A DNA stretch of 64,000 bases from Bradyrhizobium sp. WSM1417 (lineage in GTDB: Bacteria; Pseudomonadota; Alphaproteobacteria; Rhizobiales; Xanthobacteraceae): NCBI RefSeq assembly GCF_000515415.1, contig NZ_KI911783.1:2904392-2968391 (forward strand). The letters are read 5' to 3'. The notes under the pieces are model-generated. The model was not told the origin of the DNA. It saw only the letters and a list, made by a program, of their open reading frames with translations, and did no database searches. How positions within the stretch are numbered: the first letter of the stretch is position 1; each line of letters begins with the position of its first letter. This document shows, in pieces, positions 1,761 through 40,275 of this stretch. The translations under genes and the position numbers were made by a program.

Positions 1761-1789
1761 CGGGCTCCGCCTTCGTCAGGACGATGAGG

Positions 1790-1948: not shown

Positions 1949-1966
1949 GTTACCCTCCAAATTGCT

Positions 1967-5520: not shown

Positions 5521-5547
5521 TTCCTGCTGCGCTGATGGGGCTGGCTA

Positions 5548-6912: not shown

Positions 6913-7074
6913 TTATCTTTTAAGAATGGGGCCCATTGCGCGCGCCATTCGCCTCACTGATCCGGTGTGCCGACCGAGCGCAGCCGCGATCTCCGACACA
7001 ACACGCCGACGCGCCAGCCACGCAAGCCGCTTTCGCTCAGCCTGCGTCCATTCCTTTGGCTTGGACGATTTCAT
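6913..7074 (-). CDS. Small helix-turn-helix-like protein (53 aa)
   Basis: A 53-residue frame starting MKSSKPKEWTQAERKRLAWL, then ARRRVVSEIAAALGRHTGSVRRMARAMG. Residues about 9-47 fit a SANT/Myb or GcrA-like tri-helical DNA-binding pattern: W-x-x-x-E-R, then a turn S-E-I-A-A-A-L-G and a recognition helix G-S-V-R-R-M-A. High net positive charge supports nucleic-acid binding. No strong Shine-Dalgarno precedes the ATG. Such minimal HTH proteins occur in bradyrhizobia as far as I recall; the target is unknown. Confidence 0.55.
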   Translation of the reverse strand: MKSSKPKEWTQAERKRLAWLARRRVVSEIAAALGRHTGSVRRMARAMGPILKR

Positions 7075-7375
7075 TTCGAGATGGTCGAATTATCGCGACG
7101 CGAGCGATATTGGGAAATTTACGGGTGGCGGCGAGCGATCAAGGTACGCTGAGGCGCTCCGAACGAAGATATTGAATTCACGGCAGTCGGCACTGTGGCG
7201 GCGCACCCGACACGAGTGCCGGCAGGCTGGCCGGGCACCCGAGCCCGCTAGTGCCGTTGATTTATCGCAAGACAGCGCGGGTCGAGCGGCGGCAAACTTA
7301 GCTTGTAGCCGAACAGCTTGCCGACCATGTTGCTCAGGCTATACACCGGCCCTTCGTTTTTGCGCCAATTAATTC

Positions 7376-7465
7376 CTAGCTCACGATCAGCCACGTCAGC
7401 CCCGCGATCGTGCCGTAAAAGCCCGTGAGTGCAATAAGCACGAAAGCTCGCTCGATCTTGTCCAT
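7376..7465 (-). CDS. Putative 29-residue membrane peptide
   Basis: ATG preceded by GCGGGGGAAATTCA. The product MDKIERAFVLIALTGFYGTI... is one hydrophobic helix with a charged N-terminus, ending AGLTWLIVS. Size and composition match one-helix small proteins. Support is the ribosome binding site and the helix only. Confidence 0.4.
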   Translation of the reverse strand: MDKIERAFVLIALTGFYGTIAGLTWLIVS

Positions 7466-8060
7466 TGAATTTCCCCCGCAAGAAAGCCAAACGGAAAAGA
7501 CGAAGGTTACTCCCGCTCGGAGTCAATTCAAGCGCTGTCAGGTTGCGGCAGCCTCGGGACTGTGGATAACGGGAAATCCCAAGCGGCCGTTGGTAGCATC
7601 TGGGCCGGCGCCGACTAAGGCCCGCGCCGATTTGTCACTGCATCAAAGTTTCGCTGGCGGCGCGTTCACGGCGAAGCTCGGTTCAGCTTTTGTAGTCCGA
7701 TGAGTGACGATAGCGGCATGACTGGGTTTATACGAAGACGGATGCGGACCGCCTTTGGGCGTAGGCGCTGGGGCCGCAGGACACGCCTTCCGGCGCATGC
7801 ATTCGCACGATCGGCGCGCCCGCTCACGCCGGGCGGCTTCCCTTGGAATTTGATGTTGCATTTCTTCTGAATGCTCGCCTGCTCGAGCGCGACCATTTGG
7901 CCTTTCATGTTGGCGAGCTCGATATGAGTGTCCCGGCGGCGCTTGCCACTGGGTGACTATTCCCAGCGCGGGCGATCTAAGCCATTTGTGAGAGATTTGA
8001 ATCATCCAATTTACCGGATCGAAAATTGGGTTCCGTATATCTCCGGTATTACCAACCTAA
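7466..8060. other. 595-bp stretch, nothing certain
   Basis: A minus-strand reading around 7660-7910 begins MKGQMVALEQASIQKK and a second frame continues with CMRRKACPAAPAPTPKGG. Together they could be a frameshifted small gene, but start, end and family are unclear. No other feature seen. Confidence 0.25.
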
Positions 8061-8075
8061 ATGCAGGGGCAGAAG

Positions 8076-8237
8076 ATGGTCTTGATTAAGCGCTTTGTTT
8101 CAGATGAGAGTGGTGCGACCGCAATCGAGTACGGGCTTATCGCTGCAGGGATTGCGCTGGCGATCATCACCGTGGTCAACAATCTCGGCAGCACGATGAA
8201 CGACAAGTTCACATCGATTAGCAGCTCCTTGAAGTAA
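8076..8237 (+). CDS. Flp-type pilin subunit (type IVb, tad pilus)
   Basis: 53 residues: a short leader MVLIKRFVSDESG, then ATAIEYGLIAAGIALAII and a polar C-terminus. This is the Flp/Fap pilin signature: processing glycine G13, glutamate at mature position +5 and tyrosine at +6, then a hydrophobic helix that packs the pilus core. An AGGGG site precedes the ATG; an in-frame ATG at 8061 would add five residues. Prepilin peptidase (CpaA-type) and the tad assembly genes are not in the window, so this is an orphan subunit copy. Confidence 0.85.
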   Translation: MVLIKRFVSDESGATAIEYGLIAAGIALAIITVVNNLGSTMNDKFTSISSSLK

Positions 8238-8363
8238 TTTCCGCCGCTAGCCAGGAGCGCCGAGGAAGTCGTTACGGTTGCTGAGTTGGACGAGCGCAGA
8301 CTCTTGGTGCAGTCCGCCTCAGCAATGGGGGCGGGCTTTCACCCGAAGCCTAATGCCTGCTCG

Positions 8364-8480
8364 TTAGGAGAGGCAAGCGACGATCGCGAGAACCACGTCG
8401 GCGCCAAAATCGCCCGAAAATACCGAAAAGAGAATGCCTCCGCCAACTACCACTGCAATCAACAATTGAAGCGCGACCAT
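8364..8480 (-). CDS. Small one-helix membrane protein (38 aa)
   Basis: ATG preceded by GAGGGG at 8-nt spacing. MVALQLLIAVVVGGGILFSV... is one long hydrophobic helix with a glycine-rich middle, then GDFGADVVLAIVACLS. It converges on the Flp pilin gene. No family recognised; a pilus-accessory role would be guesswork. Confidence 0.45.
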   Translation of the reverse strand: MVALQLLIAVVVGGGILFSVFSGDFGADVVLAIVACLS

Positions 8481-8586
8481 TTGAAATCCCCTCGTAAGTG
8501 AGAGGAAGCTAGACCCGGACCATTTCCGGAGTGCTTCGCGCGAGCCGGCAAACGGTTTCATTCACTGAGGCGTGTCCGAAAGCTGC

Positions 8587-9627
8587 TAGAGCATGTTGTT
8601 TTTACCGGAATCGGGATTCCCAGGGAGCCGATTTCTGATTCAAACTTCGTGCTGGAGAACGGAGGCCAGCATGGATGACGCGACCCTATTCGGAAGACCT
8701 TCGTGAACGGGCTCTGGCGCGGGCTGACGCAGGGGAGACGGTTCGCTCGATTGCAGAGGCGCTTGAGATCAGTCCGTCCTGTGTAACCAAGTGGAAGAAC
8801 CTGAGGCGGGAGACTGGAGGCGTTTCGCCAGGCAAGATTGGTGGTCACAAGAGGCCGGTTCTATCAGGTGCCAATGCCGACTGGCTGCGCAAGCGCGTTC
8901 TCTCTGGGCCATTCACCTTGCGGAAGCTGACACAGGAGTTGGCGGCGCGCGGGATCAAGACAGATGTGCGGGCCGTCTGGACGTTTGTGCATGCCGAAGG
9001 ACTGAGTTTCAAAAAAAAGATCCTGCCGGCCAAACAAGATCGCCCGATATCGCTCGTAAACGGACGCGCTGGAAGGCCCATCAAGGCAAGATTGACGCTT
9101 CACGCCTGATTTTCGACGAGATCTGGATCAAGACCAACATGGCGCCACTGCGCGGCTGGGGTCCGAGTGGACAGCGGCTCCAGGCATCCGCGCCTTTCGG
9201 TCATTGGAAGACCATGACTTTCATTGCAGCGCTGCGGCACGACCAGATTAGCGCACCTTGGGTCATCGACGGCCCCATCAATGGGGAACTCTTCACCCTC
9301 TATGTCGAGAAGGTTCTGGTGCCAACGCTGACAAAAGGCGAGATCGTCATCCTCGACAATCTCAGCAGTCACAAAGGCAAGTCCGCCCGCAATGCCATCC
9401 GCGCCGCCGGAGCGCATCTGCTCTTCCTGCCGCCCTACAGTCCCGACCTCAATCCGATCGAACAGGCCTTCGCCAAGCTCAAACATCTGATGCGAGCTGC
9501 AGAGCCGCGTGACGTCGAGGCAACTTGGCGCAAGGTCGGTCAACTGCTCGACCTCTTCTCCGCCCAGGAGTGCGCCAACTATCTCAAAAATTCAGGCTAT
9601 GTTTCCGTATAAAAACAGCATGCTCTA
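8587..9627 (+). mobile_element. IS630-family insertion sequence
   Basis: About 1.04 kb between two TA dinucleotides (8587-8588 and 9626-9627), the duplicated target typical of IS630/Tc1-mariner elements. The ends match as inverted repeats: left GAGCATGTTGTTTTTACCGG, right (reversed) GAGCATGCTGTTTTTATACGG. The transposase gene fills the interior. Ends and catalytic residues look intact, but the coding frame is broken, so autonomous movement is doubtful. Confidence 0.85.
8675..9612 (+). pseudogene. IS630 transposase, one frame break
   Basis: Frame 1 (8675-9109) gives the N-terminal paired HTH domain (YSEDLRERALARADAGET, a second HTH about residues 60-110, SFKKKILPAKQDRP). The C-terminal DDE domain continues in the other frame (to 9612): DIARKRTRWKAHQ, FDEIW (first Asp), ILDNLSSHKG (second Asp), PYSPDLNPIEQAFAKLK (Glu). 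Conserved residues flank the switch directly (QDRP then DIARKR), which puts the break near 9041-9046, a missing base in a CCC run, rather than at the A8 tract at 9011-9018. The motif around the first Asp is one residue shorter than the FIDETW form I expect. Confidence 0.85.
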
Positions 9628-9768
9628 GCGGATGAGCGGCCTCGCTCGATTTCCTGCCGGATGAAAGTGGCCCCAGATCTGGGGAAACGGGTGTTGCGAG
9701 CTGGGTCCGGACGCGCCCTGAGAGGGGCGCTGGGAAACCTGGCGACAGCAGCAAGGTGCGAAGCGCGA

Positions 9769-9800
9769 AGGGCCGCTGTGGTGAGACAGCGGCCCTCTTT
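9769..9800 (+). terminator. Strong hairpin, probable terminator
   Basis: GGGCCGCTGT-GGTGAG-ACAGCGGCCC is a perfect 10-bp stem with a 6-base loop, followed by TCTTT. It suits rho-independent termination on the plus strand, although no clear gene ends just upstream except the IS630 transposase. Confidence 0.55.
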
Positions 9801-10258
9801 CCGGGTTTCAAAATGCTCGAAATGAAATCGCTGCGCCTCCCCGGTTTGCCGAGTTTTCCCGGTCCCTTATGTTCCAGCTATAACATTTGTTAGGCGGTTG
9901 TCTTAACTTCGAAATCGGTGCATCCCACCGGTCACAGCCGCAAAGCCGGGCAGGCTTTCCGCACGTGCCCCTAACAAGAAGATCTCCAGCATCTGACAGC
10001 AAAAGGCCGGCCGGTTCAGGCCGGTGGGCCTCTGTGCTAGCACCACGGGTGTCGCGCCGATCGTGCGGAACGTCGCGGCGTCGGTCGCAGGAGCAGCCTT
10101 TAGCCGTTCCTGCGACCTTCACTTTCGCGGCTCCGGCGCTCTAATCCGCAATGGATCGGCAGCCGGGAGCATTGGGGGCTGGAAAGCCAGCCGTGCCATG
10201 TTCGCTCCAAAGTGACAAGGCACCTCCGGTAGTTGTACGGAGTCCATTTTCGGAACGG

Positions 10259-10280
10259 GGTGTTCTACTGTAAGAACACC
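10259..10280. promoter_or_regulatory. Perfect palindrome, possible operator
   Basis: GGTGTTCT-ACTGTA-AGAACACC: two 8-bp arms around a 6-bp centre, in otherwise unstructured DNA. The geometry suits a dimeric regulator. No neighbouring gene start clearly belongs to it. Confidence 0.35.
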
Positions 10281-10603
10281 GGCGCGATTTAAGAACCAAC
10301 CAATTTCAAGTTGTCCGGGAATGCCGCAGTGGGGCTGGAACCACGCTGCGGCTTTTCCCATGAGCGAACCCAATTCTTTGTTGAGCCGTATCTGGCCGGA
10401 GCAATGTTTTCCGAGGGGACGGATTGTGAGCATCCAAGGCATAGTGGCGACTATATTGGAGCAAGAGCTGACCGCGCGGGCGTGCGGTCATTGCGGCATT
10501 CCGATTGCATGCAGATCGTGGAAAACCTACTCGTTCGCTTGAAGGAGCTGGACCAGGAATTAGCCGCTCGAACGATCAAGCAAAGCTGAGCTCGTATGAG
10601 AGA

Positions 10604-10644
10604 CGGCCCCGGCTTCAGGGGGCTTTGAGGTTAGGCCGGGGCCG
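10604..10644 (-). terminator. Stem-loop downstream of a minus-strand gene pair
   Basis: CGGCCCCGGC and GCCGGGGCCG form a perfect 10-bp stem with a 21-base loop about 60-100 bp past the stop of the gene at 10706. The U-tract is weak, so termination is only likely, not certain. Confidence 0.35.
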
Positions 10645-10705
10645 CTCCGCCAGCTCGGGCGGCGAGCCAGCGCGGATTCAAGCGGAAACGCCCCCGGCAG
10701 GTTCC

Positions 10706-10972
10706 TTAAGGCGCCAACAAATCCTCGCCCGGCGTCAGCAGCCGCACGTAGGTGCCGCTCTCATGCAGCTCCAGCCAGCCCTTCTCGACAGCGCACCTGA
10801 TGCCAGCGCCGAACTCTGCCCCGCTTGCTTTAAGCGTGTAGAGGAAGGGATAGTTGATCTTATCGATATGGATTCTGCCGTCCTGTACCGCCTCGATGCC
10901 TGAAGCTAGCTGAACTAGCTTGCGGGCTGCGGCTTGTGGATCGGCAAAAGGGCGTTCGGTGACGTGCTTCAT
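10706..10972 (-). CDS. Hypothetical protein (88 aa)
   Basis: From ATG 10972 it encodes 88 residues: MKHVTERPFADPQAAARKL, a helix, then IDKINYPFLYTLKASGAEF and WLELHESGTYVRLLTPGE, which read as a small mixed helix/strand domain with a winged-helix-like ending. A TTG at 10984 would overlap the stop of the upstream gene. The two genes are adjacent on the same strand and probably co-transcribed. I recall homologues in bradyrhizobia but no function. Confidence 0.6.
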   Translation of the reverse strand: MKHVTERPFADPQAAARKLVQLASGIEAVQDGRIHIDKINYPFLYTLKASGAEFGAGIRCAVEKGWLELHESGTYVRLLTPGEDLLAP

Positions 10973-10980
10973 CGGCGGAG

Positions 10981-11265
10981 TCAAAACCTCAAGCCCATGC
11001 TTGGCCTGACTTGCCCGCGGCTGTCATGCCAGTTCGGGACGATATGCACAGATCCTGCGGCGCCGCACGCTGAGCAGACCCGGCGCAAGCCGACACGCGA
11101 CCACGGCTGATCCTGCGGGAGTGCGTCGGGCCGCACGTTGACCCGGCGATCACAACGGCCATTTTGGCACTGGATGCTGCAGGTCACATGGCCGTCGGCC
11201 AGCCATTCAGCGGGGCTGCGAGGCGGATAATGGCCGGCCCATTTCGTGTATCGGCGAGTGCGCAT
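10981..11265 (-). CDS. Small zinc-ribbon-like protein (94 aa)
   Basis: 94 residues starting MRTRRYTKWAGHYPPRS. Two cysteine pairs or singles (CSIQCQNGRC near residues 29-38 and VCSACG near 63-68) are spaced as in a small treble-clef or zinc ribbon. The C-terminus is SVHIVPNWHD. Nucleic-acid or metal binding is plausible from the cysteines but unproven. It runs directly into the gene at 10706-10972. Confidence 0.6.
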   Translation of the reverse strand: MRTRRYTKWAGHYPPRSPAEWLADGHVTCSIQCQNGRCDRRVNVRPDALPQDQPWSRVGLRRVCSACGAAGSVHIVPNWHDSRGQVRPSMGLRF

Positions 11266-11413
11266 GCCGCCATCAAGGCATCGCGAGTAGCGCGCAAATT
11301 TTCGGTCGGTAGTAGCTCCAACGGTGCCGGAGCTACTGCCTATTGCGGCTCTGGAATTGACGGAGCGGCTTCCACGCCAGGCTGGGGCAGGTGCGCCGGC
11401 CTAGTAACGAAGT

Positions 11414-26779: not shown

Positions 26780-27613
26780 TCAGTTCTCTCCGCTCCAAAG
26801 GTCGATCGGGAATGCACCCATCAGGGCACGATGATCAAAGTTGAGGCGCGCAGCTCCACCCATCTCGCGCCCTTCGTCGATGCTTGAGGCAAACTCGACG
26901 CCAAACCGGCCGGTGCCTTCGTAATAGTCACGGTACTTGAACTCAGATTCCCCGCTGCTTAGCCGCACGTAGCGCGCCGGTATTCCGAATGCCTCGGCGA
27001 CGATGATGCCATGGAGCGAGCTGGCCAGAACCAGCTCGGCTTCCAGAATGGCGTCAATACGTCGATTCCAGGATCCAAGGGGTGAGACCACTGTATTGGC
27101 AGTATGGTCGATCAGATTCAAATCGTGCAGGTTCGGCACGAACACCCATTGCTTCGTGGCAGTTGGATGAAAGCGATTGGGAAACAGCCGGGGAATTAGC
27201 AGCGCAGGGTCACCAAACACCTCGGGCACAGTAATGCCCCGGCGTCGCAGGATCTCCAGTGTGCGCGGGCCGCGCACCGCGCGTACATCCAGGGTCTGCA
27301 CGCGTCGATTGAGGTCGCCCTGGCCCGGGCGTCCATTCACCCCGCTGCCCCAGACGACGTCACCATTTCGCGCATAGTGGAGCACCGAGCCGATCGCGAA
27401 TATGCGCTTTTGCAATGGCACCTCGTCCGCGAGCGTGTAGCCGAAATGTCGCAGGAGATGGTCGACCACGACCACCGACAGATAGTCACCGAAATTGATG
27501 GTTCCGTCGTCTGGTCGCCAGAAGAACAACTCCACGTGCGGATATGGCAGCGGATGAATGAAGTCGCAGCCGACTTCGTTGATCAGTCGTCGCAGATTGC
27601 CCCGGAAATTCAT
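26780..27613 (-). CDS. Polysaccharide pyruvyl transferase family protein
   Basis: 277 residues with NFGDYLSVVVVDHLLRHFGY near the start, a middle VWGSGVNGR and VRGPRTLEILRRRGI, VFGDPALLIPRLF, and late VLASSLHGIIVAEAFGIPARYV. These are the landmarks of PF04230 (CsaB/ExoV/WcaK-like), a GT-B-like fold that adds a phosphoenolpyruvate-derived ketal to a sugar, giving the polymer negative charge. Cytoplasmic. Co-transcribed with the glycosyltransferase at 25675. The intergenic region to the flippase at 27696 (82 bp) is divergent and should carry both promoters. Confidence 0.88.
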   Translation of the reverse strand: MNFRGNLRRLINEVGCDFIHPLPYPHVELFFWRPDDGTINFGDYLSVVVVDHLLRHFGYTLADEVPLQKRIFAIGSVLHYARNGDVVWGSGVNGRPGQGDLNRRVQTLDVRAVRGPRTLEILRRRGITVPEVFGDPALLIPRLFPNRFHPTATKQWVFVPNLHDLNLIDHTANTVVSPLGSWNRRIDAILEAELVLASSLHGIIVAEAFGIPARYVRLSSGESEFKYRDYYEGTGRFGVEFASSIDEGREMGGAARLNFDHRALMGAFPIDLWSGEN

Positions 27614-27695
27614 ACTGCCTCGAATTGTAGCTGCTTTCTCGCCGTAGTGTCCTCCTAAACAAGGCGACTATTGGACCATTGCAACTGATGGCTCA

Positions 27696-29204
27696 ATGAC
27701 GAGCGTTCGGCTAACCCGAGATGTGACAGGCTTCCATTTGCGCCTCGAAATTATCAAGTCGCGCTCGATCATTTCGGGCGTCATCTGGTCAGCGCTCGAT
27801 TCGGCGGTCGGCCAGTCGCTCACGCTTGTCATCTACATGATGATGGCGAGGTTGCTATCACCGCAGATCCTTGGCGTCGTGGCAACCGGCGCCCTGGCGC
27901 TCGATTTCTGCCGATCCGTTCTGATCGAGAGTGTTGCGATCGCCGTCCAGGCGCGTGCCGAGCCGAAGGACGAGGATTACACTGCCTCTTTTTGGCTCAT
28001 CGCCGGTCTCTCTTTGCTTGCGGCGCTCGCGCTTTTCGTTTCTAGCGATGCGATCGAACGTTTTTCCGGCCTTTCGGACATGGCTCTCGTTCTCAAGGGG
28101 TTTTGCATCGTGGTTGCGGTGCAGGGCTTGTCGCGGACGCACGAGGCCTGGTTGACCCGCAATCAGCTGTTTCGATCCCTTGCAATCCGCTCGCTGCTGT
28201 CCATTTCGGCGGGCGGGGCTGTTGGCATTGCGCTGGCAAGCCAGGGCTACGGAGTCCTTGCGCTGGTCGGGCAGCTCGTCACAACGTCGCTGATTTCGCT
28301 GATCAGCCTGTGGACCCTCACGCCCTGGACACCCGGTTTCCGCTTCAGCCGAAGGGCCGCCACTGAGCTTCTGAGGTACGCGCGCTACGTGGCGTTGACG
28401 GGAATCACGAACTTCGCCAACGCCAATTCCGATCTGATCTTCGTCACATGGTATACCGGCGCCGCCGGCGCGGGCTTCTACAGCCTGGCCAAGCGGCTGG
28501 TCAATGCCGTAAGCATCGTGATCGGAAATGCGTTGAACCGCGTCTTCTTTGCGACGATCGCCGGCCTCCAGCATGATCAAGGGGCTTCGCGGGCGACGCT
28601 TGTCGATTTCGTCATGTACACGTCGCTGCTGACGGCCCCGATTTTCGCTGGAATTGCGGCGCTGGCGCCGGATCTGATCGTCGACTTCTTCGGGTTGAAG
28701 TGGATTGAAGCGGCCCCGCTCCTCTCCATCATGTCGGTCACGGGATTCCTGACGACGATTGGCCTCTACAATCACTCTGTTATTCTGGCCTTCGGAAAGC
28801 CCCATTGGCAGACCTGGCTGACGCTGATCTATGCAGTTTCGAACATCACGATCTTCGTTGTTGCCGCGCCGTTCGGCCTGATTGCGATTGCGTCCGGCTA
28901 TGTCGTGCGAGCCCTGGCGCTGTATCCGCTATCTGCGGGAGCCTCGATGCGCATCCTGTCGCTGGGGATCAGGCCTTATATCCTGGCGCTGATGCCCGCA
29001 TCTGTAGGCTCCGCGGTGATGACAGGCGCGGTCGTGGGTGCATCCGTCGCCCTGCCGGCGATGTCATCGTGGCTGCGTCTTGCTGCGCTCGTGCTGTTCG
29101 GCTCCGCCGTCTATCTGGTCGTCGTGTTCGCGATGGCCCGTCCCGCCGCGATGCGGATATGCCAGGCAGCACTGAGACACGTCAGGCGATCGTCCAGCAC
29201 CTAG
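27696..29204 (+). CDS. Wzx-like polysaccharide flippase (MOP superfamily)
   Basis: 502 residues with about 13-14 membrane helices. N-terminal IISGVIWSALDSAVGQSLTLVIYMMMARLLSP is the usual opening of lipopolysaccharide-biosynthesis Wzx/RfbX-type proteins (Polysacc_synt), with YARYVALTGITNFANANSDLI in the second half. It should flip the undecaprenyl-linked repeat unit to the periplasm for the polymerase. A second, different flippase is at 35062. Confidence 0.88.
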   Translation: MTSVRLTRDVTGFHLRLEIIKSRSIISGVIWSALDSAVGQSLTLVIYMMMARLLSPQILGVVATGALALDFCRSVLIESVAIAVQARAEPKDEDYTASFWLIAGLSLLAALALFVSSDAIERFSGLSDMALVLKGFCIVVAVQGLSRTHEAWLTRNQLFRSLAIRSLLSISAGGAVGIALASQGYGVLALVGQLVTTSLISLISLWTLTPWTPGFRFSRRAATELLRYARYVALTGITNFANANSDLIFVTWYTGAAGAGFYSLAKRLVNAVSIVIGNALNRVFFATIAGLQHDQGASRATLVDFVMYTSLLTAPIFAGIAALAPDLIVDFFGLKWIEAAPLLSIMSVTGFLTTIGLYNHSVILAFGKPHWQTWLTLIYAVSNITIFVVAAPFGLIAIASGYVVRALALYPLSAGASMRILSLGIRPYILALMPASVGSAVMTGAVVGASVALPAMSSWLRLAALVLFGSAVYLVVVFAMARPAAMRICQAALRHVRRSSST

Positions 29205-29214
29205 CCTTCAAGAC

Positions 29215-30339
29215 CTAGCTTGCGTTCGCGGCCTGTCTGGTTTCGGTGAGATCGAGTGGGGCGGCGGTCGAAGCGCGGGTCAATTTCGGGTCCCCCGGCG
29301 CAAGCCGGTTGAGCAATTTTCGTGCGGGGTTTTCAACGTAGTTATATGTGACGTCGGCAACGACCGTCAGGATGATGCAACAGACCAGGGCGAAAACCGG
29401 AAAGAAGCCCGGTTGCAGTCCGAAATAATGCCAGGCCGGCTTGAACAGCAGGATAAGCACCAGCTCGTGCACCATGTAGATCGCGTATGAGGTGTTGCCG
29501 AGCCGGCCGAGCCAGTTCGAGCCTGGAAATCGGTCAAAGGCGCTTTCGCCGAGGGCGGTGCAAAGGATTGCCAGAGAGAACAGGATAATCGCGAGATCCG
29601 GCTTGGCATATACGTTCAGGACCAGGACCGAAACCCCGAACAGTGCGATGCCGGCGATCGCAACCGGCTTCCTTCGGTAGTCCTGGGACAGCTTGAAGAG
29701 GACCGTCAGCAGGATCCCGTTCAAGAAGCTCGGCAGCGCGCGCAGCATGCCAAAATCGAAATTCGCTCCGTACATCTGGGATGGCTCTTGCCAAATCGGC
29801 AGATGGCCATGAGCCAGGATCGCGTAGGAGATCGCCACGATAAGCGCCAGCACGAGAGGCGGCACGCTGGCCGCGGCGAGTATGAGAACCGGAAAAAGCA
29901 GGTAACAGAACAATTCCGCGCTGATCGACCACGAGGGCGAGTTGAAGCTTAGATGATCGGTAATGCCCCAGGCCTGCACCAGAAAGAGGTTGTAGACGAA
30001 ATCCAGCGGCCCCGTATGCGAGGTGGGACCCGCTATTCCGATCCAGGCGAGGGTCACGAATGCGAACAGCGTCAGTAAGTGTAACGGGTAAATTCGCGCG
30101 ACGCGCCGGACCAGGAAGCGACCGTAGGAGCGGATCCCCGTCGATTTCGCGGGGTAGGAATAGGAAATCACGAAACCGGAAAGGATGAAGAACATATCCA
30201 CAAACAGGCCATAGGAACCGTTCCAGGCCGGGGAGATGCCCTTGTCTATGTTCTTGAGATGGAAGATGAAGACGCCGAGTGCGGCGACGAAACGGTAGAA
30301 ATCGAGAACGACGAAGCGTCCTGGTCCACGAGAGTCCAT
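29215..30339 (-). CDS. Acyltransferase 3 family membrane protein
   Basis: 374 residues. Signature: FVVLDFYRFVAALGVFIFHL, GLFVDMFFILSGFVISYSY and FLVRRVARIYPLHLLTL, then LSFNSPSWSISAELFCYLL. About ten helices and a soluble C-terminal tail of about 30 residues. It is closest in pattern to the acyltransferase at 20858. The fourth such enzyme in the locus; it converges with the flippase gene with 10 bp between stops. Confidence 0.88.
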   Translation of the reverse strand: MDSRGPGRFVVLDFYRFVAALGVFIFHLKNIDKGISPAWNGSYGLFVDMFFILSGFVISYSYPAKSTGIRSYGRFLVRRVARIYPLHLLTLFAFVTLAWIGIAGPTSHTGPLDFVYNLFLVQAWGITDHLSFNSPSWSISAELFCYLLFPVLILAAASVPPLVLALIVAISYAILAHGHLPIWQEPSQMYGANFDFGMLRALPSFLNGILLTVLFKLSQDYRRKPVAIAGIALFGVSVLVLNVYAKPDLAIILFSLAILCTALGESAFDRFPGSNWLGRLGNTSYAIYMVHELVLILLFKPAWHYFGLQPGFFPVFALVCCIILTVVADVTYNYVENPARKLLNRLAPGDPKLTRASTAAPLDLTETRQAANAS

Positions 30340-30593: not shown

Positions 30594-33500
30594 TCAAACG
30601 AAGAGGAAATTGTGGCTTGTCAGACTGGCGACGCTGACGTTCTTGATAAGGATCGAATCGCTCTCCGCGAGGGAAACCACGGCGTCCGCGCCCGATTGCG
30701 TGATTTGCAGGTGGCCGTAGTCAGCCGCCAGCAGTTTCGAGATCTCGATAACGTCGTGGTTGCCGGCATTGCCGGCATGGAAGTTGGCGATCTGATCGAG
30801 CCCATGGTCGTAAGCGATGGTCGTCGAGCCGGGCGCCGTCGAAAACACGTCGTTGCCGTTTCCGCCCGCGATCGTTACACCAGCAGCGACCGCTGTGACG
30901 TTGTGCGCACCCGCCGCATTTGTGGTATCAAAGTATTGAAGCGCATTGGCGGCATTGTAGTGCTCATGCTGCACCGTGCCCTGCTGCCCCTTGAAGTTGA
31001 ACAGGAGAACGTCCCGGGATCCGTCTACATTGTTTGCGACCTCCTGGGTCTTGGAGCCCGCGCTGTCATAGATGTCGGTCAGCTTGCTGCCATCATCGTG
31101 GACGACTTGAGTATAGTCCAGGGTGCCGTCCGCGTGCGTCCTCGTGATCGAATCTATGTTGCCGGAAGCGTCGAGGTGCTGATGCTGAGTGGTGTAGCTC
31201 TGGCCGCCCACGTTGTAGCTCCAATTGTCCGAGCTGTGATCGGCGTTCGTAATGTAGGCGGCGGTCTTGATGCCGTTGTTATAGACTGTGGTAGAGCTGT
31301 AGCCATCGCTCTTTGTCGTTACCTCGCTCGTTAGAATACCCTTGGCGTCATACCAGTCCGACGTCTTGGTGCCGTCGGTGCTCTGCTTCAGCGTGAAGGC
31401 CAGGCTGTTGTCGGCGTGCGTCCGCACGATGTCGCTGAGGAAGCCCGTCTTGTCATAGACGTCGTGCTCGGTGGTGTAATTCTGACCGACGACGTTCAGC
31501 AGAAAGACGTCTCGCGAGCCATCAGCGTGGAAATCGGTCTCCGTCATTTTGACGCCGGAAGCGTTGTAGTTGCTGACGACGCTGCTTCCGTCTCCATGGA
31601 CCAGCTGGCTGTAGTCAAGCGTGCCGTCTGCGTGGGTCCGCGTCATCTCCGTTAGCTTGCCGGAAGCATCGAGATGCTGGTGCTGGGTCGTGTAGCTCTG
31701 TCCCTTGATGTTATAGCTGTAATTGTCGTGGCTGAGGTCCGCATTGGTGATGTAAGCTGCGGTCTTCACGCCGTTGCTGTACACCGTCGTGGAATCGTAG
31801 CCGTCGGTCTTTTGCACAACCTCGCTGGTGAGACCGCCCGTGGTGTCGTACCATTCAGTAGTCTTCGTGCCGTCGCTGCTCTGCGCCAGCTTGAAAGCCA
31901 GGCTGCCATCGGCATGCCGGCGCACCAGCGTTGTCAAGAATCCTGTCGCGTCGTAGATGTCGTGCTCGGTCGTATAATTCTGGCCGGTAACATTATAGAG
32001 CCAGACATCCTTGCTGCCATTGGCGTGATAATCCGTCTCCTTGGTCCTGCTGCCAGCTGCATCGTAGTTGGTCACGACGCTGCTGCCGTCGCTGTTGATG
32101 ATCTGGGTATAGTCCAGGGTTCCATCGGCGTGCTTGCGGGTTACGCTCGTCACTTTGCCGGAAGGATCGACATGCTGGATCAGCGTGACGTAGCTCTGGC
32201 CGGTGACGCCGTAGCTGTAATTGTCCTGGCTGCCGTCGGCATTGTGCACGTAGGCCTTGGTCTTCAGACCATTGCTGTAGAGCGTAGTCGAGTTGAAGCC
32301 GCCGGCCTTCTGCACGACCTCGCTGGTCAGGTTGCCTGCGGCATCGTACCAGTCGGTGGTCTTGGTCCCGTCCTTGCTCTGGACCAACTTGAAGGCGAGG
32401 CTGCTGTCGGCGTGCCGGCGGACCAGCGTGGTGAGGAACCCGGTCGAGTCGTAGATGTCGTGCTCAGTCGTGTAGGTCTGGCCGGTGATGTTGTACGTCC
32501 ATACGTCCTTGCTGTGATCGGCGTGATAGTCGGTCTCAACCAGCTTGAGGCCCGAGGCGCTATAATTGGTGATGACGCTGCCGCCGTCGCTGGTGAAGAC
32601 CTGGGTCGAGTCCAGCGTGCCGTCGGCATGGGTGCGAGTCACGGAGGTGAGCTTGCCGGTCGTATCGAGGTGCTGGACCTGAGTAGTATAGGTAAGTCCC
32701 TTGATGTTGTAGGTGTAGTTGTCCTGGCTGTGATCGGCGTTCAGGACGTACGAGGCAGTCTTCAAGCCATTGGTATAGATCGCTGTCGAATAGTAGCCAG
32801 TGGGCTTCTGCACGACCTCGGTGAGAAGAGTTCCGGCCGTGTTGTACGTGTCGGTGGTTCTGGTTCCATCAGTCGCTAGATGGATGAAGGAAGACTTTAT
32901 GCCTGCGGTATAGCCGATCGCATCCTTGGAGCCGTCCGAATTGACAATTGTGGTGGAGACTGGAAGTCCGCTGCTGTTGAGCCCGGTATCCGCCGTTGAG
33001 ACGAGCTTTCCAGTGGCGTCATAGGTCTTCGTGTTGATCCAGCTCGCTGCCGAGTTCGTCACTGAGAACGAATATCCACCCTGTATTTTGGACAGGGCGC
33101 TGCCGTAGTGGGCGATGATGTAGTCCATCGTCGCCTTCGACGCGACCGGCAGGATGTGCGTGTCGGTTAGCGAGATAGTTTTCAGCGCAGCCGATGAGCT
33201 CAAGTCGGACAACTGCGGCACAATCTCCGCCGCCGTACCGCTCACACTTGCTTGCGTGCTCGGAGGCGTCGACGTGGTCGCAGGCGCGTCGATCTCGATA
33301 ATGAGCGGGTGATCGCTAACAGGGATGGTGATCGTGCTGACATCGGTGTAGCTGGCGATCGCCGACGTTCCCGTCAATGTGTCGTAGACCTTTACGGAAT
33401 GATGCACGCCGCCCAGATTAAGGGTGACGGTCTGGCTCGGGTTGGATATCTCGGCGTCGGCCGCATCGTTCCAGAGCTTCGGCTCCGCCCACACAACAAG

Positions 33501-34505
33501 CTCGTAGGCCCCATTGCTCTTGCCCAGCACCATGCTGTTGCCCGAGGCCGGCATGTTGCTCAGCGTATAGTTCAGTGGATCAGTCGGCTCGTGGCCGCCC
33601 TTGCCGTCATCTGCGAGAATGCTCGTCAGATTGTGAATCGCCGTCGCGGCGAGCTTGGGTGTCCCGTCCGAGTGGAACAGACCGAACTTGGCTTCCGGGT
33701 TGGTATTGCCTGTCGAAGAGTCCCGGTCGAACATCTCGTAGAGATAGGTCGCGCTTACACCCCCCTTGTAGGCATCGACCAGGGTGTTGAGGATGGACTT
33801 GGCCTGCACGGTCTCGTCCACGCCGAGATATTGGGTGTTGGCCTGAGTCGTGTAACCCGTCTCGGTGATAACGACGGGCTTTCCTGGTGCCGCGGCCGCC
33901 ACGGCGCTTAGTGTTGCAGCCAGTGAGCTGTTCGGCGTGGCGCCGGTGCTGACATAGGCGTGGGCGTTGACGAAGTCGACCGAGCCCGACATGTTGCCGA
34001 GCTGGCTGTAGCCCTGCGGGTCATTATAGGCGAGCGACAAGTTGTAGACGGGAATGCCGGCCAGCGCCGCGTCGCCCTTCACCGCATGATACAGCACGCT
34101 CTGATACTGAGCTGCGGCCCCAAGCGTCGAGCTGCCATTGTAGCTGAACGGCTGGTGATTGGCTTCGTTCAGCCCCTCGATTGCGCTGATGCTGCCGGGG
34201 TGGCTCATCGCGAATTTTTCGAGCGATACGATGTAGTTGGCCAGTCCCGCGCTACCCTGGCCAGGCAGAGCGGACGATACGATGAAGTCGAACTTGTAAC
34301 CGGCAGCCGCCAGCCCTTCAACGACCGGCTGTGCCGCCGGGTTGGTCGCCATCGCGTCGCGGAGATGGGTGACGCCGAGATACTTCAGGTCATCGACCAT
34401 CAATGCGAGATTATTGTAGTCGGTCCACCCGAAGCCGGCATGCGTGTTGACGCCGATGGAGTTGATGAAGCCGCTTGCGGAGAGGACGGTTTGATCTGAC
34501 GACAT
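30594..34505 (-). CDS. Large type I-secreted GH-A glycanase with YD-like tandem repeats
   Basis: 1303 residues, no signal peptide. Residues about 10-320 form a glycoside hydrolase TIM barrel of clan GH-A type: acid/base E114 in GLNEANH and nucleophile E215 in VITETGY. A beta-domain follows to about 420, then a linker. From about 563 come tandem 166-residue units (three full, one partial to about 1190) with YD-repeat features such as WYDAAGNLTSEVV, HADGTLDYTQ and DVWLYNVTGQNYTTEHD. The C-terminus (about 1213-1303) has GGNGNDVF and a type I secretion target region ending HNFLFV. It probably cuts or trims the locus's own polysaccharide outside the cell, like ExsH/PlyA glycanases. The transporter is not in the window. 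Confidence 0.85.
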   Translation of the reverse strand: MSSDQTVLSASGFINSIGVNTHAGFGWTDYNNLALMVDDLKYLGVTHLRDAMATNPAAQPVVEGLAAAGYKFDFIVSSALPGQGSAGLANYIVSLEKFAMSHPGSISAIEGLNEANHQPFSYNGSSTLGAAAQYQSVLYHAVKGDAALAGIPVYNLSLAYNDPQGYSQLGNMSGSVDFVNAHAYVSTGATPNSSLAATLSAVAAAAPGKPVVITETGYTTQANTQYLGVDETVQAKSILNTLVDAYKGGVSATYLYEMFDRDSSTGNTNPEAKFGLFHSDGTPKLAATAIHNLTSILADDGKGGHEPTDPLNYTLSNMPASGNSMVLGKSNGAYELVVWAEPKLWNDAADAEISNPSQTVTLNLGGVHHSVKVYDTLTGTSAIASYTDVSTITIPVSDHPLIIEIDAPATTSTPPSTQASVSGTAAEIVPQLSDLSSSAALKTISLTDTHILPVASKATMDYIIAHYGSALSKIQGGYSFSVTNSAASWINTKTYDATGKLVSTADTGLNSSGLPVSTTIVNSDGSKDAIGYTAGIKSSFIHLATDGTRTTDTYNTAGTLLTEVVQKPTGYYSTAIYTNGLKTASYVLNADHSQDNYTYNIKGLTYTTQVQHLDTTGKLTSVTRTHADGTLDSTQVFTSDGGSVITNYSASGLKLVETDYHADHSKDVWTYNITGQTYTTEHDIYDSTGFLTTLVRRHADSSLAFKLVQSKDGTKTTDWYDAAGNLTSEVVQKAGGFNSTTLYSNGLKTKAYVHNADGSQDNYSYGVTGQSYVTLIQHVDPSGKVTSVTRKHADGTLDYTQIINSDGSSVVTNYDAAGSRTKETDYHANGSKDVWLYNVTGQNYTTEHDIYDATGFLTTLVRRHADGSLAFKLAQSSDGTKTTEWYDTTGGLTSEVVQKTDGYDSTTVYSNGVKTAAYITNADLSHDNYSYNIKGQSYTTQHQHLDASGKLTEMTRTHADGTLDYSQLVHGDGSSVVSNYNASGVKMTETDFHADGSRDVFLLNVVGQNYTTEHDVYDKTGFLSDIVRTHADNSLAFTLKQSTDGTKTSDWYDAKGILTSEVTTKSDGYSSTTVYNNGIKTAAYITNADHSSDNWSYNVGGQSYTTQHQHLDASGNIDSITRTHADGTLDYTQVVHDDGSKLTDIYDSAGSKTQEVANNVDGSRDVLLFNFKGQQGTVQHEHYNAANALQYFDTTNAAGAHNVTAVAAGVTIAGGNGNDVFSTAPGSTTIAYDHGLDQIANFHAGNAGNHDVIEISKLLAADYGHLQITQSGADAVVSLAESDSILIKNVSVASLTSHNFLFV
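31321..32820 (-). repeat. 498-bp tandem coding repeats
   Basis: The same landmark (the EV codons of SEVVQK-type motifs, plus strand acctcg) recurs at 31321, 31819, 32317 and 32815, exactly 498 bp apart each time. Each unit encodes 166 residues and itself contains two related parts: ADGSxD...HADGTLDY...SDGSS, matched 72 residues later by ANGSKD...HADGSLAF...SDGTK. There is no drift in length between units. Confidence 0.92.
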
Positions 34506-37751: not shown

Positions 37752-39110
37752 TTACCGTGCCGGCCGTATATCCAGTGCGGGAATGGCGTCATTATTGGCC
37801 GCGATCAGGACCGGCGTGCTCGAAACCGGCAGCCAGATCCCGGAGGCTGGCCTTGCGGTTGCATCGCAGGGGGCCGCGAAAGTCGCGCCCGGCAGATCGC
37901 CTCTGATCCGGACCTCGTAGCGTCGATCCGGGTCCTCGGACCAGACCGCGACTTTGCCGCCGGTGCTCGAGGTTGCTCCGATCGACATCACCCCGGTGGC
38001 AAGGCTTCTACGTTCCGCGGTCAGGGTGGACCGGATGAATGCCCAGGCGCCACGCGCCGCGCAAGCTACGGGTTTGGGCGAGTTGTCGAAGCCGTAGAGG
38101 CCGAAATTGTCCTCCAGCTCGGCCGGATTGTGGCCGCTGTTTTTGAGCTCATAGATCCACATTCCCTTGAGCCAGCGCGCCGCTGTCGAGGCCCACAGGA
38201 TGAGCTGTGCCGTGTTATCGGCCTGGGCCTGCTCGCTGACACCGCATTTGTTTGCAGCCGTGGTCCAGCCAGTTTCGGTCACGTACACCGGGAAGTCGGG
38301 ATTGCCGCTCGCCTGGCCGACCAGCCGATGGAAGGTCGTGAGGCGGTCGATAATCTCGGTCGAAGTGCGCTTCGCCGGCGCCATGCAGAAATTATAAAGA
38401 TGAACTGAGGCGCCATCGGCGTATTGAAGGATGCCGGTTTGCAGCATCTTCTCCGTCCACGTCCAACCGGGATCGTCGCCGATCGCGCCGACGACGAAAG
38501 GCGCATTCGGCACCGCCTGCTTGACCGCAGGGCGTGCTGCCTTGGCGAGGGCCAGGTAATTCTCGGCTGAGAACGAAGCGTCCTTCTTGGCTGCCAGATT
38601 CCACTCGTTCCAGAGTTCGAAGATCGGGCGCTGCGGCGCTACTGATCGCGCGGCCGCTCCCGCATAGTCCGCGAACCGCTGCCGGGCTTCGTCCGTCGTC
38701 GGGGGCGACGAGTTCGGCACGAGGTGATGGCCGAATGCAAGGATGAGGAGCGGCCGGGCGATGCCGGACTGAACCTGCGCGTCGAGCCTGCCCAACCGCG
38801 GCGTGAATCCCATCCGATGGCCAGGCGATTCGAAATCAGACCAGGGAAAATCGTCGCGGAACGCGTTAAAGCCCAGTTGCTTGATCTGACCGACGTTCAC
38901 GGAGGGCACGTAGCCTCGCGAACTGACCGGCCCTCCCAGTCCCTGATGGGTGCCGATACCCAACAGAAATCTGCTTTCAAGCGTCTGAGCCTGTTGAGCG
39001 CATGCCGGGACCGACAGAGAAACAGACGCGATGAGGCTCGCGATCCAGAGAAGCCCGTTGCGACCCAAGGTACGGTGGCCTGCCATCGCCTGGATCATAC
39101 TCGTCATCAT
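37752..39110 (-). CDS. Secreted GH-A clan glycoside hydrolase (GH39/PslG-like)
   Basis: 452 residues from a doubled ATG preceded by GGCGAG. Signal peptide about 1-39 (LLWIASLIASVSLSVPACAQ). TIM-barrel landmarks: FNAFRDDFPWSDFE, acid/base E169 in LWNEWN, SVHLYNF, nucleophile E279 in VTETGW, and a C-terminal beta-domain. The order of motifs matches glycosidases placed inside exopolysaccharide operons, such as PslG, which act in the periplasm or at the surface on the polymer being made. It sits between two glycosyltransferases in one operon. It shares fold and both catalytic motifs with the N-terminus of the 1303-residue protein. Confidence 0.85.
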   Translation of the reverse strand: MMTSMIQAMAGHRTLGRNGLLWIASLIASVSLSVPACAQQAQTLESRFLLGIGTHQGLGGPVSSRGYVPSVNVGQIKQLGFNAFRDDFPWSDFESPGHRMGFTPRLGRLDAQVQSGIARPLLILAFGHHLVPNSSPPTTDEARQRFADYAGAAARSVAPQRPIFELWNEWNLAAKKDASFSAENYLALAKAARPAVKQAVPNAPFVVGAIGDDPGWTWTEKMLQTGILQYADGASVHLYNFCMAPAKRTSTEIIDRLTTFHRLVGQASGNPDFPVYVTETGWTTAANKCGVSEQAQADNTAQLILWASTAARWLKGMWIYELKNSGHNPAELEDNFGLYGFDNSPKPVACAARGAWAFIRSTLTAERRSLATGVMSIGATSSTGGKVAVWSEDPDRRYEVRIRGDLPGATFAAPCDATARPASGIWLPVSSTPVLIAANNDAIPALDIRPAR

Positions 39111-39132
39111 TACTCGCCTGCCGCAACTCACC

Positions 39133-40275
39133 TCAAGAAGGATTCGAGAGGTCCGATTGCAGTGCCACGTTCTGCTCGACCCCGCTTTTGTTGTCGTCGA
39201 GGAGCTCGACATAGACCTGATGCAGCTGGCGGTGTGTCTTCTGGACGTCATAAAACTGCTTGAAGCGATCGTAGCCGCGTTGCCCCAGGACCTCGAGATC
39301 CAGATTGATTATCCGTCGGAAGCCGTCGATGAGAGGTTGAACCGCGACAGGCTCGCAAAGCACGCCGGTAACTCCGTCAACGACGATTTCAGGGAGCGCT
39401 CCGCTGTGGAAGGCCAGGATGGGCTTGGCCGCACGCATCGCTTCCAGAGCGACGAGGCCGAAGGCCTCCCATCGTGACGGGATGACGACGAGATCGGCCG
39501 CCTCCAGGTGAGTCTCGATTTGCTGACGATCCAGCCAGCCCAGCAGCGAGACGTTGGCGGGAACCGCAGCTCCGTCGAACTTGTTGACGACGGAGGCGCC
39601 GACAATGCGAACATCCAGAACATCTTCGAGGGATCGTGCGGCCTCGATCAGGAGGTCGAAGCCCTTTTGTCGATCAAGGCGGCCGATGAAAAGGACCTTG
39701 GCCTTCTTTGAAGTCCATTCTGTCGCAACGCCGTGCGGCAGTGGGCGGCTCTTGGAGATGCCATTGTGTACCAGGGTCAGACGGTCGGTCGGAATTCCTG
39801 CCCGGACCGCTTCATTGAATTCATCGCCGGAAATGCAGATGATTCGATCCGACGTGCGGGCCAGAAGAGTCTCTGCAGCCTTTGCCGCCAGATGGCTCAG
39901 GCGGCCGGTCTCGCGCGAGAATGCCCAGCCATGCGGGCAATAGACGACGCGCGGACCTTCAGAACGAGCGGCCAACGCGGGCCTGAGAACGAGTCCGGCA
40001 AACGACGAATGGAGATGCATCACGTCGGGCTTGAAGGCGTCGAGCGCGTGCATGCTCGCCCGCAACATCTGAAATAGTCCGGCGATGCTGCGGCCCGATC
40101 TGTCGAAGGTCGTGATCTGGCTGTCATCGATTCCAACGAGGTCGTGGCGATGATCCGACGGCACAACATAGTGCACGTTCTCCGCGCCGAAGCTCGCTTG
40201 CTGCTGCGGATGCAATTCGTTCAGGTAGCTCGCTATCCCACCCCGGATGGTTTCCGCGACATGCAGCACCTTCAT
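39133..40275 (-). CDS. Family 4 glycosyltransferase
   Basis: 380 residues from MKVLHVAETIRGGIASYL, preceded by AAGGCAGGCG; an ATG 39 bp earlier (40314) is possible. GT-B landmarks: LHSSFAGLVLRPAL, PHGWAFSRETG, ICISGDEFNEAV, then VLFIGRLDRQKGFDLLIEA, VVIPSRWEAFGLVALEAMRAAKPI (the E-x7-E nucleotide-sugar region). First gene of the minus-strand operon 35062-40275, 22 bp before the PslG-like glycanase. Confidence 0.9.
   Translation of the reverse strand: MKVLHVAETIRGGIASYLNELHPQQQASFGAENVHYVVPSDHRHDLVGIDDSQITTFDRSGRSIAGLFQMLRASMHALDAFKPDVMHLHSSFAGLVLRPALAARSEGPRVVYCPHGWAFSRETGRLSHLAAKAAETLLARTSDRIICISGDEFNEAVRAGIPTDRLTLVHNGISKSRPLPHGVATEWTSKKAKVLFIGRLDRQKGFDLLIEAARSLEDVLDVRIVGASVVNKFDGAAVPANVSLLGWLDRQQIETHLEAADLVVIPSRWEAFGLVALEAMRAAKPILAFHSGALPEIVVDGVTGVLCEPVAVQPLIDGFRRIINLDLEVLGQRGYDRFKQFYDVQKTHRQLHQVYVELLDDNKSGVEQNVALQSDLSNPS

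What the first reader, a model, noticed from the sequence alone, without database searches (positions are those of the whole stretch)
30594..34505. Glycanase fused to exact-register YD-like tandem repeats and a type I secretion tail
One protein joins a GH-A catalytic barrel (E114 and E215), at least three 166-residue repeats spaced exactly 498 bp and a T1SS-type C-terminus. Each repeat is itself an internal duplication (72-residue offset). YD-like repeats are known from RHS proteins but I do not know them between a glycanase and a T1SS tail in an exopolysaccharide locus. They may bind the polymer or set enzyme reach. Constant unit length suggests recent amplification or ongoing gene conversion, and copy number may vary between strains.
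Basis: partly seen in the sequence, partly recalled or inferred. Interest (0 to 1): 0.75.

Follow-up and report, generated by a model that had tools for sequence, protein, structure and literature searches.

The report
Slime-cutting enzyme on long repeat ribbon
A soil bacterium that lives with legumes makes a probably exported enzyme, likely to trim its own sugar slime, whose long repeat ribbon, more than its cutting part, varies with the type of slime genes next door, hinting that the ribbon is what recognises the slime.

Summary
A 1303-residue Bradyrhizobium protein in an exopolysaccharide (EPS) locus joins a PslG-like GH-A barrel (E114, E215), four 166-residue units (last incomplete) spaced exactly 498 bp, and a type I secretion-like C-terminus. 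The repeats are predicted as about 61 antiparallel strands, locally like Rhs/YD hairpins and engineered OspA, but outside the curated YD model. Ribbon and tail also occur behind other catalytic domains, once beside type I exporter genes. Unexpectedly, in 48 loci with two flippase/acyl-/pyruvyl-transferase versions, trees of two neighbour genes and the catalytic domain need 6-10 type changes, the repeat tree 2, the tail tree 5; all 13 near-fixed differences between types (close clade) fall in the repeats. The tail lies between repeats and type block, so simple hitchhiking explains this poorly; old linked alleles remain possible. Best reading: an exported PslG-like glycanase whose ribbon binds, and is matched to, the cell's own EPS. 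Activity, export and binding are untested.

The parts
30594..34505 (-). Whole CDS, 1303 aa (P0001)
   Evidence: orthologues in 33 named loci, 32 titled Bradyrhizobium and one 'Frankia sp. RB7'; matches at E 1e-200 or better in 91 of 265 genus genomes, own included
33615..34505 (-). Catalytic barrel region, residues 1-297
   Evidence: AlphaFold2 model of residues 1-740, mean pLDDT 87.5; Foldseek PslG E 1e-16
34164..34166 (-). E114, predicted acid/base (aligns with the NE Glu of the neighbour GH)
   Evidence: Invariant in 28 of 28; hhalign to neighbour GH profile
33861..33863 (-). E215, predicted nucleophile (TETG motif)
   Evidence: Invariant in 28 of 28; hhalign
33291..33575 (-). Beta domain behind the barrel, residues 311-405
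   Evidence: Strands in model
33072..33254 (-). Cap, residues 418-478 (TAAEIV...LTDTH.L motif), also in the R. leguminosarum heparin-lyase-type protein
30921..33071 (-). Repeat ribbon, residues 479-1195, 61 predicted strands, one per 11.75 residues
   Evidence: Model of residues 405-1303, mean pLDDT 88.9, pTM 0.46; strand count
32325..32822 (-). Unit 1, residues 562-727 (166 aa)
31827..32324 (-). Unit 2, residues 728-893; in the stretch with the strongest link to EPS type
31329..31826 (-). Unit 3, residues 894-1059
30921..31328 (-). Unit 4, incomplete, residues 1060-1195
30597..30905 (-). Type I secretion-like tail, residues 1201-1303, one RTX-like GGNGND motif at residue 1214
   Evidence: the similar tail in L101 is encoded beside T1SS ABC and HlyD genes
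37752..39251 (-). Second, PslG-like glycanase of the locus with a hydrophobic N-terminal segment (probably Sec-exported)
   Evidence: PslG phmmer E 2.9e-4; Cellulase PF00150; found near the gene in 33 of 33 named loci
26780..30339 (.). EPS-type block: pyruvyl transferase (-), flippase Wzx (+), acyltransferase (-), exchanged between loci

Best explanation
It is an EPS-trimming glycanase, released outside the cell by type I secretion. The N-terminal PslG-like (GH39-type, retaining) barrel is the cutter. The repeats fold outside as a long antiparallel single-layer ribbon, about 29 nm if extended, that holds on to the cell's own EPS, so the cutter works on polymer at or near the cell surface. The tail is the export signal. 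Ribbon alleles are kept matched to the version of EPS that the neighbouring flippase/pyruvyl-/acyl-transferase block makes, while cutter and tail recombine more freely across versions. The neighbouring GH probably edits the polymer in the periplasm, as proposed for PslG. Shown by computation: architecture, predicted local fold, invariant catalytic residues, conserved locus, purifying selection, co-segregation of repeats with type. Inferred: activity, substrate, export route, polymer binding, selection as the cause of co-segregation.
For: PslG entries are the top structural hits (5bx9 E 9.8e-17, TMt 0.62). E114 and E215 are invariant in 28 of 28 and align with the NE and TETG Glu of the neighbour GH (hhalign 99.1%, E 8.4e-19), which itself matches PslG. 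The gene and the second GH lie together in 33 of 33 named loci. No N-terminal hydrophobic segment; the genome has four adjacent T1SS ABC + HlyD pairs, all four HlyD and one ABC (PrtD) over the curated cut-offs; a protein with similar cap, ribbon and tail in R. leguminosarum lies beside T1SS genes and near an EPS autokinase. Median dN/dS to 32 orthologues is 0.11 (GH) and 0.16 (repeats). Type changes on trees of 48 loci: two neighbours 9 and 10, GH 6, cap 7, repeats 2, tail 5, acyltransferase 1; shuffles mean 15, minimum 9-11. Equal 309-nt windows: those starting at residues 4-404 need 5-9 changes, 504-1004 need 1-4, 1054-1201 need 4-5. In the close clade 13 of 13 near-fixed type differences are in repeats. 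Of 12 type-A loci the best match in the repeats is type A in 11, in the GH in 5. In 15 new close loci alone repeats again differ most: 0.059 against GH 0.013, cap 0.030, tail 0.022. PlyA/PlyB are published type I-secreted EPS glycanases active only in contact with the cell surface (PMC9298526, passages).
Against: No enzyme, binding or secretion data exist here. Far-clade type-A loci do not lean towards the close clade's type-A repeats and carry mixed states at the diagnostic sites, so there is no residue signature of type across clades; the link may trace to few events. Fourfold-degenerate sites in the repeats are differentiated too, as expected of old linked alleles. GH, cap and tail are weakly linked as well: in all 38 close loci label shuffles rarely reach them either (GH 0, cap 1, tail 5 of 2000), and mean identity is higher to the own type in 34 of 38 loci for GH and 30 of 38 for tail, against 37 of 38 for repeats. 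The last, incomplete unit is no more linked than the tail (4-5 changes). L062 has mixed repeats. A strand-face analysis gave no aromatic binding face. pTM of the ribbon model is 0.46, so its global shape is uncertain. A tail-like segment also occurs inside a longer ORF of the same genome.
Confidence: 0.5

Rival explanations
1. The ribbon is only a spacer or folding scaffold (an RTX substitute) that separates cutter from export signal; its link to EPS type is old linkage preserved because diverged repeat alleles recombine poorly.
For: Only one RTX-like motif in the protein, so the ribbon stands where RTX rolls usually are (recalled); synonymous sites in repeats are differentiated; no trans-clade type signature; unit spacing differs in divergent relatives: about 161, 117, 95.
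Against: Linkage to the type block should be strongest in the tail, which lies next to it, but windows in the tail and last unit need 4-5 changes and those in the middle of the repeats 1-3. Neighbour gene 35062 is at least as variable as the repeats (within-type identity 0.88; repeats within type B 0.91) yet needs 9 type changes.
Confidence: 0.35
2. The substrate is not the cell's own EPS but plant cell wall or another microbe's polysaccharide, and the EPS locus is only its address.
For: Related ribbons are attached to other enzymes: GH113 (L074) and a protein annotated heparin lyase I family; weak sequence-profile hits of the barrel to GH17 enzymes, plant glucanases among them.
Against: Fixed place in the EPS locus near a PslG-like GH in 33 of 33 named loci; top fold match PslG, itself an EPS-locus enzyme (PMC9075953, passages).
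Confidence: 0.13
3. The repeats form a closed Rhs/YD shell that encloses cargo.
For: Rhs and teneurin shells are the top ribbon hits by Foldseek E-value (2e-20).
Against: TM-scores to them are at most 0.12. No YD model match. No obvious cargo domain: barrel and tail are otherwise accounted for.
Confidence: 0.02

Closest known systems
PslG, GH39 endo-beta-glucanase of the Psl locus (Pseudomonas aeruginosa)
   Same: Barrel plus beta domain, two catalytic Glu, gene in an EPS locus (PMC11912335 and PMC9075953, passages)
   Different: PslG sits mainly at the inner membrane, some in the periplasm (PMC9075953, passages); here there is no N-terminal hydrophobic segment, and a ribbon and export tail are added
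PlyA/PlyB, type I-secreted EPS glycanases of Rhizobium leguminosarum
   Same: PrsDE-exported glycanases that cut own EPS at the cell surface (PMC9298526, PMC2275737, passages)
   Different: They carry a C-terminal Ra/cadherin-like domain (PMC9298526, passages); here a PslG-like barrel and a repeat ribbon. Sequences not compared here
Rhs/YD repeats and teneurin shells
   Same: Local strand-turn pattern
   Different: No YD model match, TM at most 0.12
Engineered OspA with extra beta-hairpins (single-layer beta-sheet)
   Same: Hairpin pattern in fold (2fkj) and in profile (3eex, E 1e-5)
   Different: About 61 strands here, 14-19% identity in the alignments, different biology; native OspA matches only weakly (E 0.3-2.5)
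Protein annotated heparin lyase I family, WP_283187641.1, R. leguminosarum pRlBT01b (L101)
   Same: Similar cap, ribbon and tail; beside T1SS genes and near an EPS autokinase
   Different: Different catalytic domain; about 25% identity in the shared part

Membership tests
GH39 / PslG-type glycoside hydrolase | Fold of barrel plus beta domain | tested here: met
   Foldseek 5bx9 E 9.8e-17, TMt 0.62 on a predicted model
GH39 / PslG-type glycoside hydrolase | Acid/base Glu and nucleophile Glu (Glu165, Glu276 in PslG) | tested here: met
   E114 and E215 invariant in 28 of 28, aligned with the NE and TETG Glu of the PslG-like neighbour; not superposed on PslG itself
GH39 / PslG-type glycoside hydrolase | Curated GH family model match | tested here: not met
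   0 Pfam families at E 1 for this protein; of 28 aligned members one hits Glyco_hydro_cc (3.7e-4) and one GH17 (1.1e-3)
GH39 / PslG-type glycoside hydrolase | Activity on EPS | not testable with these tools
   Needs an enzyme assay
YD / Rhs repeats | YD repeat model TIGR01643 | tested here: not met
   No ring at this gene at E 10; 3 of 23 aligned members at best E 0.029
YD / Rhs repeats | Local hairpin fold | tested here: met
   Rhs structures top the ribbon search, E 2e-20
YD / Rhs repeats | Closed shell | tested here: inconclusive
   TM at most 0.12 to shells; own pTM only 0.46
OspA-type single-layer beta-sheet | Consecutive 22-24-residue hairpins in one layer | tested here: inconclusive
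Type I secretion substrate | No Sec signal; C-terminal export region | tested here: inconclusive
   No hydrophobic N-terminus and a tail like one encoded beside T1SS genes, but export itself not shown and a similar segment lies inside another ORF
Type I secretion substrate | RTX nonapeptide array | tested here: not met
   One GGNGND motif only; HemolysinCabind not hit
T1SS-secreted EPS glycanase (PlyA/PlyB kind) | Cuts own EPS outside the cell | not testable with these tools
   Locus and predicted fold only

The most novel reading that the evidence does not exclude
The repeat ribbon is a modular, EPS-type-matched reader. Its alleles are held together with the flippase/pyruvyl-/acyl-transferase block that sets the polymer's chemistry, while catalytic domain and export tail recombine more freely across types. 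Ribbon and tail are reused behind unrelated polysaccharide-degrading domains (PslG-like GH, GH113, and, with the same cap, a heparin-lyase-like domain) as a way to export an enzyme and aim it at one's own coat.
Probability: 0.3. Interest if true: 0.75.

Novelty: new variant of a known kind. Interest (0 to 1): 0.6.

Why it matters
Secreted EPS glycanases decide polymer length and biofilm texture, and rhizobial EPS matters for nodulation. If the ribbon reads EPS type, natural alleles give a ready test set for how a repeat protein recognises a surface polymer, and a way to predict EPS type from protein sequence. It would also be a natural, roughly 60-strand single-layer-like sheet, a form I recall mainly from engineered OspA.

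Tried and rejected
Recent amplification or gene conversion: rejected. Closed Rhs shell: unlikely. Curated repeat family: scattered, inconsistent hits only, among them MORN_2 in 6 of 23 and ChuX_HutX in 18 of 23 aligned members, not used. Strand-face composition to find an aromatic binding face: no difference between faces under a simple pairing rule, so no conclusion. Phage origin of the repeats: tblastn of residues 562-1303 against 50,697 phage records, no match at E 1e-3. tRNA in the window: none. Half-unit profile: 7 of 398 genomes of the phylum (6 same genus) and 7 of 297 of the order (5 same genus), own included, at E 1e-5, so the module is sparse outside Bradyrhizobium at this sensitivity. 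Novelty was judged from literature searches (listings and abstract starts) and passages of PMC2275737, PMC11912335, PMC9075953, PMC9298526, PMC8707904 (for the last also one section); nothing I saw there described this architecture, but most subscription papers are not in the library. The single-layer-sheet property of OspA and 4.8 A per strand are recalled.

Rows dropped: L056 (extra unit) from the statistics; L008; L049 and L052 (neither type); searches compare 24 of the 33 named loci (6 A, 18 B) and look at 7 far type-A proteins, window included, and L049 and L052 only at the diagnostic sites. L125 (internal indel, misnumbered) is left out but appears with meaningless values. Type-O loci (7 of 59), three 1468-residue proteins and the window itself are not in the 48 loci. 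The close clade was set at GH identity 0.90 to L036 and 0.88 (11 A, 29 B). One search used other cut-offs on 24 loci and found 16 near-fixed differences, 15 in repeats and one in GH (residue 191). Label shuffles do not correct for kinship.
Full report
What is there. The window lies in a single 8.05 Mb contig whose close relatives are Bradyrhizobium. ORF 30594-34505 on the minus strand encodes 1303 residues without an internal stop. E114 and E215 sit in NE and TETG motifs and are invariant in 28 of 28 aligned sequences, window included. Four copies of a 300-nt reference are spaced exactly 498 bp. Self-identity over residues 561-1195 is 65% at offset 166 and 25% at offset 72, against at most 14.5% in 1000 shuffles. 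Each unit is a 72-residue half, repeated, plus one extra 22-residue hairpin. The fourth unit is cut short by the tail.

Surroundings. The locus carries a sugar transferase, a Wzz/kinase-like protein, flippase, pyruvyl transferase, several acyltransferases and glycosyltransferases, and GDP-mannose pathway genes. A second glycanase (37752-39251) with a hydrophobic N-terminal segment matches Cellulase PF00150 and, weakly, PslG. In 33 of 33 named orthologous loci this GH, four glycosyltransferases, gene 35062 and an acyltransferase are found in the 8-kb flanks. B. diazoefficiens USDA110 has a comparable EPS cluster, blr2358-bll2384, in which a transposon insertion in blr2358 left little EPS (PMC8707904, one section and passages); I did not show that the two clusters are the same.

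Catalytic domain. No Pfam model matches at E 1 and no PDB sequence by phmmer at E 1. AlphaFold2 on residues 1-740 gave mean pLDDT 87.5. The three best PDB matches are PslG entries (E 1e-16 to 5e-16, TM to target 0.62-0.64, 16% identity). Profile comparison with the neighbour GH gives probability 99.1% over 399 columns and aligns both Glu. [quoted passage not shown]

Ribbon. AlphaFold2 on residues 405-1303 gave mean pLDDT 88.9 but pTM 0.46: local structure is trusted, global shape is not. It shows 61 strands over residues 479-1195, one per 11.75 residues, about 29 nm if extended at 4.8 A per strand (spacing recalled). Foldseek puts Rhs and teneurin shells first by E-value (from 2e-20) with TM at most 0.12, and engineered OspA next (2fkj, 1.7e-12) with TM to target about 0.3. 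A 17-row profile of half-units matches engineered OspA (3eex, E 1e-5) and native OspA only at E 0.3 or worse. The YD model TIGR01643 does not ring at this gene at E 10. So 'YD-like' is fair for the local hairpin, not for family membership.

Export. The protein has no N-terminal hydrophobic segment. Its last 100 residues carry one GGNGND motif and align with the C-termini of ribbon proteins that have other catalytic domains. One of these, on R. leguminosarum plasmid pRlBT01b, is annotated heparin lyase I family, has a similar cap and ribbon (about 25% identity, E 6e-33), and lies next to a type I permease/ATPase and an HlyD-type adaptor, with a polysaccharide tyrosine autokinase about 2 kb away. 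The window genome has four adjacent T1SS ABC + HlyD pairs, none in the window; all four HlyD but only one ABC (PrtD) pass the curated cut-offs. Against this: no curated RTX model matches, and a similar segment sits inside a 3423-residue ORF rich in GGxGxD runs, so it is not exclusively terminal.

Modularity. The barrel occurs without ribbon: L077 has barrel and tail, L078 a barrel only. The ribbon occurs without this barrel: behind GH113 (PF22612, E 2e-43) in L074 and its near relative L075 (not scanned), in the heparin-lyase-type protein, and in L073, which starts with repeats. Unit spacing is 166, about 161, 117 or 95 residues in different relatives. A match at E 1e-200 or better is found in 91 of 265 genus genomes, own included; the half-unit profile rings in 7 of 297 order and 7 of 398 phylum genomes.

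Age of the repeats. Within the window protein units 1-3 are 66-69% identical in protein and 70-72% in DNA, with dS 1.14-1.30, above the median dS of the repeats to 32 orthologues (0.91). Across 34 proteins the nearest relative of a unit is a same-position unit of another protein in 135 of 136 cases. Of 59 distinct proteins from 89 fetched loci, 54 are 1298-1304 residues, 3 are 1468 (one unit more) and 2, more distant, are 1284 and 1287. So amplification is old; single gains occur. In L056 the closest units are 85% identical in DNA. Median dN/dS is 0.11 for the GH domain, 0.16 for the repeats and 0.20 for the tail, so all are under purifying selection.

Link with EPS type. Named loci carry either a flippase 75-85% identical to the window's together with its pyruvyl transferase (type A, 13 of 33), or a flippase only 24-26% identical (type B, 18 of 33), or neither (2 of 33). 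One locus of each kind, scanned with Pfam, shows that both have an acyltransferase, a flippase and a pyruvyl transferase, in different order, the flippase and pyruvyl transferase of different kinds. For 12 type-A loci the best match in the repeats is another type-A locus in 11, in the GH in 5. In 24 close-clade loci (6 A, 18 B), differentiation between types is 0.002-0.009 in six flanking genes on both sides, 0.23 in the acyltransferase and 0.70 in the flippase; within the gene it is 0.004 in GH (125 of 5000 label shuffles reach it), 0.003 in the cap (1078), 0.046 in the repeats (0) and 0.007 in the tail (100). I then fetched 56 more loci; 26 gave new proteins. In the 15 new close loci alone (4 A, 11 B) repeats are again highest (0.059), with GH 0.013, cap 0.030 and tail 0.022; shuffles rarely reach any of these (0-6 of 2000). 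In all 38 close loci the values are GH 0.007, cap 0.012, repeats 0.051, tail 0.007, and mean identity is higher to the own type in 34 (GH), 37 (repeats) and 30 (tail) of 38 loci. On trees of 48 loci (19 A, 29 B) the type label changes 9 and 10 times on two neighbour genes, 6 on GH, 7 on cap, 2 on repeats, 5 on tail and 1 on the acyltransferase, against a mean of 15 in shuffles. In equal 309-nt windows the counts are 5-9 for windows starting at residues 4-404, 5 at 454, 1-4 from 504 to 1004 with the minimum at 704-806, and 4-5 from 1054 to the end. In the close clade (11 A, 29 B) all 13 near-fixed differences (at least 75% in each type) lie in repeats, none in GH (residues 4-410), cap or tail; with other cut-offs on 24 loci it was 15 of 16.

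What that means. The tail lies between the repeats and the exchanged block. A block dragged in by one crossover would carry the tail along, so linkage should peak in the tail; it peaks in the middle of the repeats, and the last unit is as weakly linked as the tail. Low resolution is not the likely cause: gene 35062 is at least as variable and needs 9 changes, and the tail has higher dN than the repeats. I read this as repeats kept matched to EPS type, hence in contact with the polymer. Limits: fourfold sites differ too, so these are old alleles, not single selected residues; far-clade type-A loci do not lean towards close-clade type-A repeats; GH, cap and tail are weakly linked as well; the number of independent events may be small; shuffles ignore kinship; and diverged repeats may simply recombine less.

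Mechanism and verdict. The best reading is a T1SS-exported PslG-like glycanase that trims own EPS and is aimed by the ribbon; PlyA and PlyB of R. leguminosarum are the functional precedent, type I-exported and active only in contact with the cell surface (PMC9298526, passages; PMC2275737, passages). It is a new variant of a known kind. The finding's architecture is confirmed, its evolutionary interpretation is not, and its guess of polymer binding gains unexpected indirect support.

Noticed in passing
26780-30339 and L033-L065: The acyltransferase-flippase-pyruvyl transferase block is exchanged between two main versions across Bradyrhizobium EPS loci, with flanks otherwise conserved; two named loci (L049, L052) fit neither.
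   Followed up: partly
L073 (G002), 7037-11356 -: A 1440-aa ORF with ribbon half-units at about 95-residue spacing followed by roughly 300 C-terminal residues without a clear Pfam family.
   Followed up: no
L102, S. meliloti psymA, 2-6403 +: A 2134-aa ORF, in a stretch without listed genes in the plasmid table, with many DG-rich repeats weakly like the half-unit.
   Followed up: no
L076 (G058), 7826-10107: A relative of the barrel appears split over two overlapping frames (281 and 614 aa), perhaps a frameshift in the draft; only described.
   Followed up: no
G014 contig 445, L067 and L068: Two very similar (by eye) copies of the ribbon glycanase, both 1555-aa frames, on opposite strands about 56 kb apart.
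   Followed up: no
L104 (G145) and L105 (G252): Ribbon half-units combined with RTX-type C-termini in other families of the order (Pfam-scanned only for L104).
   Followed up: partly
L040, JAUEPE010000005.1: An orthologous EPS locus lies in a record titled Frankia sp. RB7, although the locus is Bradyrhizobium-like; perhaps a misnamed record.
   Followed up: no
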